From Mesostigma viride (taxonomy: Eukaryota; Streptophyta; Mesostigmatophyceae; Mesostigmatales; Mesostigmataceae): a stretch of DNA of 64,000 bases. Under the pieces are notes generated by a model. The model searched no databases. It was not told the DNA's origin and was given only the letters and a program-made list of their open reading frames with translations. A program made the position numbers and the translations under genes. Positions 27,401 through 33,400 of the stretch are shown here, in pieces. The DNA lies in NCBI GenBank assembly GCA_009746045.1, contig RPFO01000104.1, positions 98,501 through 162,500 of the forward strand, written 5' to 3'. Position 1 is the first letter of the stretch; each line of letters opens with the position of its first letter.

Positions 27401-30400
27401 GGACGTCCTACACTGCTACATGCTTTCTGCTAGGATCTCGGCATTCTCTCGGCTCTCGAGAAAAATGTATTGAGAATTGAAAAAAACCGGTAGCACCAAC
27501 ACAAATGAAGCGTGAAACAAGAAGCACATCAGCAAGTATGAACTGCTACACTGTAGTGAACAACAACGAACTGCTTGAGATATGTTATGACATCACAACA
27601 ATTGAGCGGTATAGGAGCTGATGTCATCCAACTTTTCCCCTCTAACTCTGGGTTGGAGTTACGACACGCCTAGTCTTTTTGTTTCTTTTTCTTGGCAGAG
27701 CCATCGACAGCGTATATAATTGAACACACTTCACTCTTGGTTATCACGATCTCCCCCCCTTCAGGCTGTGCCGTGCGGAGTTTGTGGTCCACAAGCGCAA
27801 GGTGCAAGACGCGCTCGCGCGCAACTGGAGGACGGGCCAGCGCTTCTCGATGCAGTTCGAGGTCACGCACGGGAAGCCTGCGGGGTACGTGAGGGGCCTT
27901 GCGCGCATGGCTGGTCATAGATTGGGTCATGGGATGGGTCATGGGTGACCCATGTTGGTCATGAGTTGGGTGATTATTGACCCGGGCTTGTCAACCTTGA
28001 ATGCTTGCTGGTTTTCTTGCACGTGCGGGTGCAATGCTGATTGTTTCATGGCCCGTCAGTTTTGTGTGGCGCCTGGGTTGCCCACTCGACCCTCTTCCCT
28101 TATCTCGCCATGCGCACGGGACCCCAAAGGGAGAAATTGAATGATGCCAACATTACACTGCAAGAGGTAGCAAAGTAAGCAAACGCAAACTCAGCCTCCC
28201 CTTGTCTCACACACCACGACCCCACCGGCCGCTACATGCCCACGATGCCACCACCCTCCCGCTGCCACCGTGAGCCCATGACTCCTGCCCCCCCCCCCAC
28301 ACCTGCCAAGGCCCGTACATGACACAGTTACCACCCCACTCGCCCGCGTGTCCATGAAGCTATCCACCTACTGTTGCGCCCCACATGCCCAACACGCCAC
28401 CCATTGGCGCGCACTCATGCCACATGCCCATTACTCCACCTACCTGATGCCATACACCCATCGGCGCGCAGCTACCTGGGCACGGTTGTGGGCTCAGGCG
28501 ACATGGACTCGAGCCGCTGGCCAGGGTCCCCCTGGGGCATGCTCCAGGTGTGCTGGGATGACGCCGACTCACGTAAGGAGTACCAGCGAATTAGTCCCTG
28601 GGAGATCCACCCGGTGGGCGCCACGTCCGGAACCCCCCAAGGGCCCGATGGCGCCGCCGCGCCCGCCTCCAACCTTGTCGAGTTGAGCTTTGTATCGGCT
28701 GGCGCGGCAGGTCGCGCCCTACCGCCCCCCAATGGTGAGGGCGCGCGCCCCAAACCGATCATGGGCGCGCGCAAGATGGCGCACCAGCCCCCGGTTGCGC
28801 AGGGTGGTGTCAAGGATCAGCTGGGCCATCGACCCAAAGGGAGCGGGGCCTCACCCGGTGGCCCATGTGGAGATGCCCCCAATGCCCGCAGCGCCGAGAT
28901 CGGCAAGTCGCACGCGGGCGCGGCAGGCGCAGGCGAGCGCAAGGTCCACCATGCCGGCGGCAGCGCGGATGGGCACAAGTGGGGCCTGCCGCCCGCGGAA
29001 CCAGGGGCAGCGGGCAGCAAGGGAGGCCCCACGGGCGCTCGGGCGGCCAAACCGGTCTCCCCCCATGCGCCCATGGATCGCGATGATGTGCCGGCCAGCG
29101 GGCGGCCAGGGGAGCCGTTGTCACCACCAACGCCCACACGCGGGACAGGCGCCAACCGTCTGGTGATTGAGATGATCATCTCGCATCCGGCACAAGCGGC
29201 GGAAGCGGACGCATCGAGCCGCGATGATGCCAGCCCCCACGGAGTCACGTCAGCGCCCAGGCAGGGCACGGCCGAGGGTGAACGGTCCCCGCGGGCAGGG
29301 GACGGGCGGGCGGTCGATGGGCGGAGGGGACGGGGGCGACCGCCCAGGCCCGGCGAGCGGCCAGGGGCAGGCCGGGCCGGTTTCTTACTGCGAGGCCACC
29401 AGCAGGGGGCCAAGGCGGTGTATTACGGGGGCCCGACGCGGGGCGGGGGCGTGCGGGGGCGAGGGAAGGGCCATGATGGGCTCCCCTCGGCGCGGGGGGC
29501 TGTCTCTGGCCAGCCAGGGACCGGCCAGGTGCCCTGCCTCTCGCCAGACGGCGCACGGGGAAACCTCGAGGGGACGGACGGCGCGGACGGTGGCGTGTGC
29601 AGCGGTGGTGCCTCTGTGGCCTGGAACATGGTGGACCGGTTCCAGGGTCCCTTGCCTCATCGAGATACGGATGGTGGTGAGGGCGCCGGGGTAGGGGCGC
29701 ATCATCCACCTGGCAGTGGCGGTGTGGGTGCTGGGGAGCAAGGGGACGCGAGTGGGGAGGACATGCCGCTGGTGGAGATGGGTGACAGCGGTACCATGAA
29801 CGGCGCGCTAGCTGCTGATGTCAGCGCCCACCGAGGGGTCAGCCTGGTGTGGGACGCCAGCTGGTCGGGTGTCCTGCGGGGGGTGGTGCGCGGCCACAGC
29901 CCGCCCCCGGAGGGGAGGAAGGAGAATGGCGGCCAGCGCAGGGACCCTGGGCAGATCGCGCCGACCGCGTATCGGTACTTGGCGGTGCTGAGCCGCAGCG
30001 GGGGTAAGAGGGAGCTGTTCCTGGGGGCATACGCCAGCAAGGAGGAGGCGCGTGGCATGCTGCAGCGTGGGCTTTACGTGTTCAGGTGCGTGAGGAGAGC
30101 GCAACGTGTAAGTTTGACACTAGAACGCGATGCCCGGGCAATGCAAGGGCCAAGAAACCGGAATCCGTTCTTGCCCCGGGAAAGCCCAGAGATCGGTGTG
30201 GGACAGCTGGCAGTTCGTTTCGGTCTCTCTGATCGTAGCTGTGGCCGTGGGTGGGCCCCTCCAACACACCTAAAGCACGCGATTCCTTGTTTCATTGCAT
30301 GTCTTTTCCTTTGGCTGCAGACGTGCGTTCATAGAGGTAGTATTTCACTAGGATCAATCTTCCTGGCCAATCTGGTTGAGGAGGTAACAGCAAATGTGCT

Positions 30401-33400
30401 GTGGCCTTCATGAGTCCTGTGCTGTGTGCTCACCGGCCAGTAAGTCGTGGTCTCGTCACGGTCCGCCCTTGCTGTCAATTCCTCGACCCCCCAATGGTGT
30501 ACATGTCACCTCCGTTTCTGCGCCCAAGCGTGCATGCCTCACACTACTCCTTACCTCCCACTGTACTGCCTCACTCGTGTGGTTTCCCCCTTGACATTTG
30601 TGCCCTCGTTGACCACTTGCTTGTCAACCCCACGCACGTGCTGGTCACGTTGAGGTTGCGCACAGCCCTTGGCCACGGCGGACTCACATCCAAACCTTCT
30701 TGCATCCGTGACCCCCTTCACAACCTTTGAGCACGGTGACCAGCGCAAGCAAGTAGGAGATGAAGCGCGTGTGCGGGTCCTCACACACCACCTTGCCTTA
30801 ACCGCATCCACATGCTTGCCTTCATGCCCTCATGCACAACCCGCCTTTTGTGCGTGACCAGCGCGAGCATTGAGGAGAAGAAGCGCGTGTTGGCGACGCC
30901 CGCGGCAGCCCCCCCTGTGGATGCGGTGGAGTTAGCGTGGCTGGACACGCTGACGCCGGAGGAGGTGAGTGCGTGGTTGTGCCGGGTGGCATCCTTGTCA
31001 TGCGGTCTAGGGCAATAGTAATGGCAACTAGATTGCACGGTGGTTCGTGAGAGTGGCCGTGTTGCAGCACGCAGCGAGGTCATACCATGCGTTGGACGAC
31101 CATGTATCGCAGTATCATAGCTACACCGTGGTAATCACCATGAGTTACCATAAGCTCAGGGTGGCGAGTCATTCTGTGTTTATTTTCCTGTTTTCTTTTT
31201 ATATCTCGCATTGGGTGTGGCGCTAGGCCCGAAAACAACAACAAGCGGCCAGAATTGGCGTCCTCTAACTGATGCCTTTCCTGTTGCAGTCCCTTCGGTG
31301 AGCGTTGTGGTCCCATAGCTTGTAATACTACCCCTTGGATGCCAGCATCAATCATTTCCCATACGTCATGCAATGGCTGCCCCTTAACTACTACAGCTAG
31401 TACAAGTACCGGTGCTGGTATCACTACCACTGGAATTACCACCACTACTATTTCCGCTACGACTCTACCACCGCCGCCACTACCACTAGTACCAGCTTTC
31501 CTGTGGTTCCTTTGTCGTCCTCGCGTCCAGGCTTATGCCATCCTCACCACCCACACCTTACACGTCCTCTCCACTTCTCTTTCCCCTCATCCCCTTTTTC
31601 TCCTCTTATCTTCCTCCTCTCCTCACCTATGGAGTCTCCTCTCCTCTCACCTCATGTTGAGTCCCATATGACTTTGTCCCTCCCCTCCCCCCCTCCCCTC
31701 CCCTCCCCTCCCCTCCCCTCCCCTCCCCTCCCCTCCCCTCCCCTCCCCTCCCTCCCCTCCCCTCCCCTCCCCTCCCCTCCCTCCCCTCCCCTCCCCTCCC
31801 CTCCCCTCCCCTCCCCTCCCCTCCCCTCCCCTCCCTCCCCTCCCCTCCCCTCCCCTCCCCTCCCCTCCCTCCCCTCCCCTCCCCTCCCCTCCTCCCTCCC
31901 CTCCCTCCCTCCCCTCCCCTCCCTCCCTCCCCTCCCTCCCCTCCCCTCCCTCCCCTCCCCTCCCCTCCCCTCCCCCTCCCTCCCCTCCCTCCCCTCCCCT
32001 CCCTCCCCTCCCCTCCCCTCCCTCCCCTCCCCTCCCCTCCCTCCCTCCCCTCCCCTCCCCTCCCCTCCCCTCCCTCCCTCCCTCCCCTCCCCCTCCCCTC
32101 CCCTCCCCTCCCCTCCCCTCCCCTCCCCTCCCTCCCCTCCCCTCCCCTCCCCTCCCCTCCCCTCCTCCCTCCCCTCCCCTCCCTCCTCCCCTCCCCTCCC
32201 TCCCTCCCCTCCCCTCCCCTCCCTCCCCTCCCCTCCCTCCCCTCCCCTCCCCTCCCCTCCCCTCCCCTCCCCTCCCTCCCCTCCCCTCCCCTCCCCTCCC
32301 CTCCCCTCCCCTCCCCTCCCCTCCCCTCCCTCCCCTCCCCTCCCCTCCCCTTCCCTCTCCCCTCCCCTTACCCCCAGTTCCTGTCCTACCTCCGCGAGGG
32401 GCGCTACGAGGCAGAGCGGTCCGCCACCCTGGGCCACGAGTTGGTAGTGGCTAAGTTGACCAAGTCCCAGGCGGCGTGCGCGCCGGAGCAGCTAGCTGCA
32501 GCGCGCACGCAGATGATCACAGCACTCGAGTCGGCAGCCGCCGCAGCGGCCGGGGCAGCCAGCGCGGCGGTGGCGGCGGCAGCAGCGGCGACCATTGTAC
32601 GTGACTATAGGTGGCCTGCTATCCCGCATAGGTGGCAAGTGTGGGTGACCATGGATATGATATGCTCCTGTGAGGACACGGGCAATTGTTTGTGGTCGTG
32701 GATGTGCTGTCAGAAAGGCGGAACCCAGACCGCTTATAAACATGGGCTGCCTTGCAAAGCGGTACTGATCTGTTGTGTTCATGGCACTGGATGGTGTCCT
32801 GTCCTTGTCTCGTTTTGGTGGTCCTTGTCTCGGTAGTATTTGGTCGTGTTCGCTGCATTCAGGGTCTTGTATGCGCTGCTCTGCCCTCAGGATGCGTCTA
32901 TTGCTTTTACTGTTCCCTCTTTGGATTCGTTCGTAGGAGCTCTCCCTTCTGCCTCCTTCCTTTCGTCCCTCGCTTCCATTCCCTCCTTCAAGCACAGCTC
33001 CCCCTCCCCCCCCCCGACATGGTCTCCTTCCACCACCACATTACCCCCACGTCCCCTCCCCTCCCCTCCCCTCCACCACTTTGCCTCCCCCCCCCCCTAC
33101 GCATGATCTTCCCCCCCATCCCCCCCATTACCTTCACTCTCCATCCCTCACTTTCTGTCCTTCCCCCACCTACACACAATATCTCCATCTCCCACCCCCT
33201 GCCCACTTAACCTCCCCTATCACCACCATCGCCAGCTGCGAGACGAGGTGCATCCTCGGCCCATCGCCAACACCACGGAAGCCGGCGCGGGGCGCGGGGA
33301 GAACAATGCCGCAGGTGGCAACAGAGGATTCGGCGCGTGGCAGCCCTCGCGCGCGGACGTCAGCAGTGAGGGCGCGAGGCCCAGCGAACGCGCGCTGGCC

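What the first reader, a model, noticed from the sequence alone, without database searches (positions are those of the whole stretch)
28472..32596. AP2-type DNA-binding repeat fused to an ARF in one exon
Seen directly: exon 9 is open from the end of the Auxin_resp domain ([14 protein letters not shown]) to [19 protein letters not shown] and [19 protein letters not shown]. The latter aligns without a gap over 38 positions to strands 2-3 and the helix of ANT-type AP2 repeats, with at least ten identities. Exons 10-11 add LTPEEFLSYLRE, which matches the linker after AP2 repeat 1. Strand 1 (LRGVVRG) is separated by an insertion of about 30 residues. Known plant families have B3+AP2 (RAV) or ARF, but B3+Auxin_resp+AP2 in one chain would be unusual and could show two DNA-binding modules on one auxin-type regulator.
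Basis: partly seen in the sequence, partly recalled or inferred. Interest (0 to 1): 0.9.

Follow-up and report, generated by a model that had tools for sequence, protein, structure and literature searches.

The report
Divergent algal ARF with AP2-like tail
This is a very divergent relative of the plant auxin-response regulators, missing most of the residues such proteins use to read DNA, with a tail that carries a faint, unproven resemblance to a second plant DNA-binding domain called AP2.

Summary
The coding sequence is as described. Eleven exons (6290-32596) join at GT-AG borders into a 965-residue open frame; a further in-frame stretch to a stop at 33937 would give about 1,198 residues. The N-terminal part is a real but divergent ARF: B3 41.2 bits, ARF_AD 87.4 bits, long alignments to solved ARFs. 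No PB1 was found. The B3 keeps 1 of 6 residues that read the auxin element. This fits the published description of the Mesostigma viride ARF (PMC6797205), so the locus is probably that gene or a close relative; the species was not tested.

The AP2 claim is open. Pfam AP2 is not listed, the best HMMER domain covers 26 residues, and Pfam SPOR reaches 14 bits on the same stretch. But strand 1, strands 2-3 plus helix, and an ANT-type linker occur in order, summing to 40.9 bits. None of 400,000 shuffles reached that (best 32.5), though I chose the blocks after the match had been noticed. AlphaFold2 models have low confidence.

Verdict: a degenerate AP2-like module in an ARF tail is plausible (about 0.5). 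Two working DNA-binding modules are unsupported.

The parts
6290..6412 (+). Exon 1, start of the ARF dimerization domain ([22 protein letters not shown]...), begins at an ATG
   Evidence: translation and donor site; ARF DBD profile hit 37.6 bits on this frame
7869..7961 (+). Exon 2, dimerization domain
   Evidence: in-frame AG/GT exon; aligned to ARFs as part of the joined chain; not among the listed hits
8663..8728 (+). Exon 3, dimerization domain
   Evidence: weak on its own, 5.4 bits
10331..10525 (+). Exon 4, start of B3; the ARF STHGGF loop reads LSL-GIS here
   Evidence: not among the listed hits
23367..23469 (+). Exon 5, B3 middle; the ARF RGQPRR loop reads GASTKR across the exon 5-6 junction
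   Evidence: not among the listed hits
25893..25983 (+). Exon 6, B3 end
   Evidence: 15.8 bits
26748..26915 (+). Exon 7, end of B3 and return into the dimerization domain
   Evidence: weak on its own, 6.8 bits
27765..27884 (+). Exon 8, start of the ARF ancillary domain
   Evidence: 19.9 bits
28472..30085 (+). Exon 9: end of ARF ancillary domain (about 28472-28616), low-complexity middle region, AP2-like stretch
   Evidence: Pfam PF06507 54.8 bits on this exon alone; coding statistics
29868..29894 (+). AP2 strand-1-like block GVLRGVVRG
   Evidence: 9.8 bits to the AP2 block profile; place
29970..30083 (+). AP2-like strands 2-3 plus helix, [38 protein letters not shown]
   Evidence: 22.9 bits, 2 of 400,000 shuffles reach it; best HMMER domain covers 29973-30050 only; hairpin plus helix in a low-confidence AlphaFold2 model
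30862..30964 (+). Exon 10, first part of the linker-like motif (...[11 protein letters not shown])
   Evidence: in-frame AG/GT exon
32378..32596 (+). Exon 11, rest of the linker-like motif (FLSYLRE...) and alanine-rich tail
33236..33937 (+). Probable last exon: phase-0 frame from an AG acceptor to TGA, charged low-complexity, no Pfam domain listed; would make a protein of about 1,198 residues
   Evidence: inference, no transcript

Best explanation
The locus encodes a very divergent auxin response factor of the basal (ABC) kind known from Mesostigma. Shown from sequence: the dimerization-ancillary scaffold is kept, the B3 base-reading loops are mostly lost, and no PB1 was found. Inferred: the C-terminal extension carries a remodelled, degenerate AP2 repeat (strand 1, a lengthened turn, strands 2-3, helix, ANT-type linker), probably gained by exon shuffling. 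I think it most likely that the protein no longer reads the TGTCNN element. It would act through its dimerizing, Tudor-like scaffold, with the AP2-derived hairpin and helix giving a protein contact or weak nucleic-acid contact rather than a second sequence-specific DNA grip.
For: ARF identity: B3 41.2 bits (cut-off 30.1) and ARF_AD 87.4 bits (cut-off 27); phmmer alignments to 6sdg (residues 8-370, E 4.5e-46), 4ldu (8-368) and 4ldx (8-372); 61 hits at E<=1e-5 for residues 1-372, the top one 33% identical. Lost contacts: H136 to L, G137 gap, R181 to G, Q183 to S, P184 to T, R186 kept, mapped by motif through an ARF1 hit (P0125); 57 of 57 aligned ARFs keep G137, R181, P184 and R186. No PB1 found. 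PMC6797205 (section 6 read) describes an M. viride ARF homologue without PB1 and without most AuxRE-contacting residues. AP2-like part: three blocks in the right order total 40.9 bits, with 0 of 400,000 shuffles and, for the full profile set, 0 of 4,000 column-permuted profiles. Best three-block null values: 17.0 bits in 272 E. coli windows, 16.8 in 2,487 overlapping windows of ARF (both directions) and reversed AP2 proteins, 9.8 in 251 windows of other frames of this window. Predicted strand, strand and helix fall where AP2 strands 2 and 3 and the helix would be. Given AP2 proteins, MAFFT placed the stretch on the ANT second repeat with strand 1 in register, though it had to place it somewhere.
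Against: Pfam AP2 is not listed for exon 9, the 77-residue stretch or the spliced tail, while Pfam SPOR scores 14 bits (cut-off 21, E 0.068) on the 77-residue stretch. Strands 2-3 plus helix alone have an extrapolated p of 5.6e-6, which over 24,736 Pfam families is about 0.14. For the three-block sum a Gumbel fit gives 7.0e-6 on shuffles and 2.0e-5 on decoys, much less favourable than the tail extrapolation of 1.6e-8. With the R1-only profile 1 of 4,000 decoys reached two of the three sums. Real ERF or RAV AP2 domains score 41-46 bits on the main block against 23.6 here with the same ANT-only profile; they were scored in aligned columns with gaps ignored. HMMs: linker alone 119 of 5000 shuffles, first repeat alone 13 of 5000, first repeat plus linker 21 of 5000. 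Models have pTM 0.35 and no significant PDB match. The tail search returned nothing at E<=10 from 7,994 candidates. Species, transcript and exon joins are not shown by RNA.
Confidence: 0.5

Rival explanations
1. The AP2 resemblance is chance. The tail has an ordinary beta-hairpin plus helix and an unrelated alpha-helical segment, and the ARF is simply divergent.
Against: Three separate blocks occur in the AP2 order; 0 of 400,000 shuffles and 0 of 4,000 decoys of the full profile set reach the sum.
Confidence: 0.37
2. The gene model is wrong: the AP2-like stretch or exons 10-11 belong to another transcript, or the exon 10-11 join across the CCCTC array is not used.
For: No RNA was available; intron 10 holds a 691-base CCCTC array (31678-32368) that ends nine bases before exon 11; no near-identical protein was returned in the length ranges searched.
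Against: One open frame links the ancillary domain to the AP2-like stretch within exon 9; borders and phases fit through exon 11; third-position GC like that of exons 7-8, though unlike exons 1-4.
Confidence: 0.1
3. A functional two-module DNA-binding ARF with working B3 and AP2.
For: B3 and AP2-like parts lie in one predicted chain.
Against: 1 of 6 B3 base contacts kept; degenerate AP2-like stretch with a lengthened turn and few of the contact residues that I recall for AtERF1.
Confidence: 0.03

Closest known systems
Mesostigma viride ARF homologue (GBSK01006108.1, PMC6797205; ABC-class in PMC11685440)
   Same: ARF-type DBD, most AuxRE-contacting residues missing, no PB1
   Different: No AP2-like tail is mentioned in the passages I saw; the two sequences could not be compared here
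RAV proteins (AP2 + B3, with PB1 in algae and bryophytes)
   Same: B3 together with AP2 in one chain; RAV and ARF are proposed to share an ancestral gene (PMC11685440, section 7)
   Different: AP2 lies N-terminal in RAV and there is no ARF ancillary domain (recalled); here the AP2-like part is C-terminal and degenerate, and its linker resembles ANT-type proteins
ANT/WRI1-type AP2 proteins (two AP2 repeats with a linker)
   Same: Block order and linker-like motif
   Different: 22-column insertion in the first turn, helix core not conserved, no clear second repeat

Membership tests
Auxin response factor (ARF) | B3 domain inside a dimerization domain | tested here: met
   Pfam B3 41.2 bits against cut-off 30.1; alignment to 6sdg over residues 8-370
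Auxin response factor (ARF) | Ancillary domain (PF06507) | tested here: met
   87.4 bits against cut-off 27; the related BRWD_AD model scores 26 bits, below its cut-off of 40
Auxin response factor (ARF) | Base-contacting residues for TGTCNN | tested here: not met
   1 of 6 kept (positions from PMC10690724, passages); lowers DNA-reading function, not homology
Auxin response factor (ARF) | C-terminal PB1 (lost in some ARFs) | tested here: not met
   best six-frame hit 4.4 bits with a profile from 20 ARFs; no Pfam domain at E<=0.5 in four downstream stretches
AP2/ERF domain (PF00847) | Pfam gathering score | tested here: not met
   not listed for exon 9, the 77-residue stretch or the spliced tail
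AP2/ERF domain (PF00847) | Strands 2-3 with the WLG-type element | tested here: met
   FLG-AY; 22.9 bits, 2 of 400,000 shuffles
AP2/ERF domain (PF00847) | Strand 1 (YRG) one short turn before strand 2 | tested here: inconclusive
   LRGVVRG present but 22 extra columns in the turn; no strand in the lone-sequence model, a strand if AP2 relatives are supplied
AP2/ERF domain (PF00847) | Amphipathic helix with the RAYD core | tested here: not met
   ARGMLQRGL in place of AAxAYDxAA; after the EEA the next eight positions score zero or below
AP2/ERF domain (PF00847) | Three-stranded sheet plus helix fold | tested here: inconclusive
RAV | AP2 N-terminal to a RAV-type B3 | tested here: not met
   Pfam lists only B3, ARF_AD and BRWD_AD in residues 1-398; the AP2-like stretch is C-terminal; whether the B3 is RAV-type was not tested

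The most novel reading that the evidence does not exclude
The most basal class of ARF carries a true AP2 module in the same chain, either a relic of the AP2-bearing RAV/ARF ancestor that PMC11685440 lists as a scenario, or an independent ARF-AP2 fusion, with DNA recognition moved from a decayed B3 to a remodelled AP2.
Probability: 0.1. Interest if true: 0.85.

Novelty: new variant of a known kind. Interest (0 to 1): 0.42.

Why it matters
ARF and RAV are thought to descend from one B3 gene, and whether the ancestor carried AP2 is left open in PMC11685440 (figure legend seen). A confirmed AP2-derived module in a basal ARF would bear directly on that question. It would also show what a lineage does with an ARF that has lost the residues for reading the auxin element. 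If the AP2 resemblance is chance, the locus remains a useful annotated example of a divergent ARF without PB1.

Tried and rejected
Rejected: AP2 as settled, because the curated model is silent and the folds are weak. Rejected: SPOR as the identity, because its 14 bits are below its cut-off of 21, it matches only profile positions 32-63 of 76, and it is not listed for the whole exon or the spliced tail. Rejected: the ARF running into the giant downstream frames (34364-37783 and 35677-44343), because an in-frame exon to a stop at 33937 closes the model; that stop is inference. Considered: a 69-base in-frame GT..AG stretch (29886-29954) removed from exon 9 would shorten the AP2 turn. Of 19 such excisions of 40-120 bases it scored best with the generic profile, but the gain is only 15.4 to 18.6 bits. 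Considered: a degenerate second repeat at [12 protein letters not shown]..., 6.2 bits, which I do not count as evidence.

Limits of the profiles: one search listed 120 of 6,182 AP2 hits; 98 distinct sequences (97 ANT-type and WRI1) went into the ANT profiles, 31 of them (62 repeats) plus 3 ERF/RAV domains into the generic one. One search used 57 of 61 ARF hits and one search used 20 of 61. In one search the strand-1 scores for the 3-sequence ERF/RAV profile came out as not-a-number and were dropped; its main block was reached by 44 of 40,000 shuffles. The second AlphaFold2 job was given 12 AP2 proteins and so leans towards AP2.
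Full report
What the sequence holds. Eleven exons between 6290 and 32596 join with AG/GT borders (exon 1 begins at an ATG) into one open frame of 965 residues (exon by exon). Exon 1 reads [22 protein letters not shown], as in ARF dimerization domains. From an AG acceptor at 33236 the same phase stays open to a TGA ending at 33937, giving a probable chain of about 1,198 residues. No transcript was available, so all joins are inference from borders, phase and protein similarity.

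It is an ARF. Pfam gives B3 at 41.2 bits (cut-off 30.1) and ARF_AD at 87.4 bits (cut-off 27). phmmer against the PDB aligns residues 8-370 with MpARF2 (6sdg, E 4.5e-46), 8-368 with 4ldu and 8-372 with 4ldx. A search of the protein collection with residues 1-372 gave 61 hits at E<=1e-5 among 5,646 candidates, the top one 33% identical; no near-identical protein was returned (lengths searched 531-1689). Single exons are not all recognisable alone: in six frames an ARF profile picks out exons 1, 6, 8 and 9 at 15.8-49.0 bits and exons 3 and 7 weakly, and exons 2, 4 and 5 are not among the rows printed. I infer a distant ARF.

It probably cannot read the auxin element. PMC10690724 (passages) lists H136, G137, R181, Q183, P184 and R186 of AtARF1 as the residues that enter the major groove. 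In the window these are L, gap, G, S, T and R, mapped by motif through the ARF1 hit P0125 and in line with the alignment to 6sdg. Of 57 aligned ARF hits, 57 keep G137, R181, P184 and R186. A profile of ARF C-termini finds no PB1 in any frame (best 4.4 bits), and Pfam lists no domain at E<=0.5 in four downstream stretches. PMC6797205 (section 6 read) says that Mesostigma viride has an ARF homologue devoid of PB1 that lacks most AuxRE-contacting residues. PMC11685440 (passages; section 7) puts Mesostigma and Chlorokybus ARFs in a basal ABC class. The window therefore fits the Mesostigma ARF. The species itself was not tested, because the genome search did not complete.

The AP2-like stretch. After the ancillary domain, exon 9 runs through a low-complexity region of about 400 residues into LRGVVRG (residues 788-794), an insertion, [38 protein letters not shown] (820-857) and, across the exon 10-11 join, [23 protein letters not shown] (878-900). 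Third-position GC is 0.88, 0.85 and 0.81 for the AP2-like part of exon 9 and for exons 10 and 11, against 0.74 for the middle of exon 9; it is 0.80-0.90 in exons 7-8 and the ancillary part of exon 9 but 0.48-0.55 in exons 1-4, so it supports coding only weakly.

Tests that go for AP2, with their weak members. HMMs: generic AP2 profile 15.4 bits, 0 of 5000 shuffles (best 8.8); ANT second repeat 13.4 bits, 0 of 5000; both repeats with linker 10.1 bits, 1 of 5000; first repeat 4.7 bits, 13 of 5000; first repeat plus linker 3.6 bits, 21 of 5000; linker alone 1.2 bits, 119 of 5000. Ungapped block profiles give 22.9 bits for strands 2-3 plus helix (2 of 400,000 shuffles), 32.8 with strand 1 (0 of 400,000, best 28.9) and 40.9 with the linker (0 of 400,000, best 32.5). 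Extrapolating the tail gives p 1.6e-8 for the sum, but a Gumbel fit to 40,000 shuffles gives 7.0e-6 and to 4,000 column-permuted profiles 2.0e-5. No decoy of the full profile set reached any of the three scores; with the R1-only set 1 of 4,000 reached two of them. Three-block values in other null windows stayed at or below 17.0. ERF1, TEM1 and ERF096 score 41-46 on the main block with an ANT-only profile, against 23.6 for the window, so if it is AP2 it is far more degenerate than these. I defined the blocks after the resemblance had been noticed. Correcting for 24,736 Pfam families leaves about 4e-4 for the sum by the tail estimate, about 0.17 by the Gumbel estimate, and about 0.14 for the main block alone by the tail estimate. 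These figures are why I stop at about one half.

Mechanism. Shown: ARF scaffold kept, base-reading residues lost, no PB1 found, tail in one open frame. Inferred: the tail derives from an AP2 repeat of ANT type with a lengthened turn. From recalled AtERF1 contacts (R147, R150, R152, W154, K156, E160, R162, R170, W172, T175; no call), R147 and a K-to-R change at 156 are all that remain in my reading of the alignment, so sequence-specific DNA binding by the tail is unlikely. I favour a scaffold protein that dimerizes and may engage chromatin through its Tudor-like ancillary domain (an origin argued in PMC11685440), with the tail as a contact surface. None of this is tested.

Relation to known systems. 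RAV proteins join AP2 and B3, but with AP2 first. PMC11685440 draws scenarios in which the RAV/ARF ancestor had AP2 (figure legend). A relic in a basal ARF would suit them, but position and linker type do not match RAV. Of three further papers seen as passages only, PMC5873896 describes charophyte proteins with AP2, B3 and PB1 as proto-RAV; [quoted passage not shown] PMC11003162 mentions AP2 only as a family enriched among upstream regulators. None of these passages describes AP2 in an ARF.

Verdict.

Noticed in passing
13504-15224 and 15872-17592: A pair of inverted arms of 1,721 bases, 94% complementary, 647 bases apart, inside the large intron 4; perhaps a mobile element.
   Followed up: partly
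47716-49446 (-): A 577-residue open frame with DnaJ (56.5 bits) and Jiv90 (79.1 bits) domains, a J-domain chaperone gene near the ARF.
   Followed up: partly
50735-53779 (+): A 1,015-residue open frame with a reverse transcriptase domain (RVT_1 76.4 bits), LINE-like, preceded by a 353-base CAA array at 50005-50357.
   Followed up: partly
35677-44343 (+): A 2,888-residue open frame with long asparagine, threonine and glutamine runs, partly from a CAA array (36852-37763); Pfam lists only a sub-threshold TFIIA match (20.3 bits, cut-off 36.2).
   Followed up: partly
31678-32368: A 691-base CCCTC array fills the end of intron 10 and stops nine bases before exon 11.
   Followed up: no
32399-32512: [38 protein letters not shown] follows the linker-like motif where a second AP2 repeat would lie; it scores 6.2 bits, the second-best place in the tail for the main AP2 block.
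   Followed up: partly
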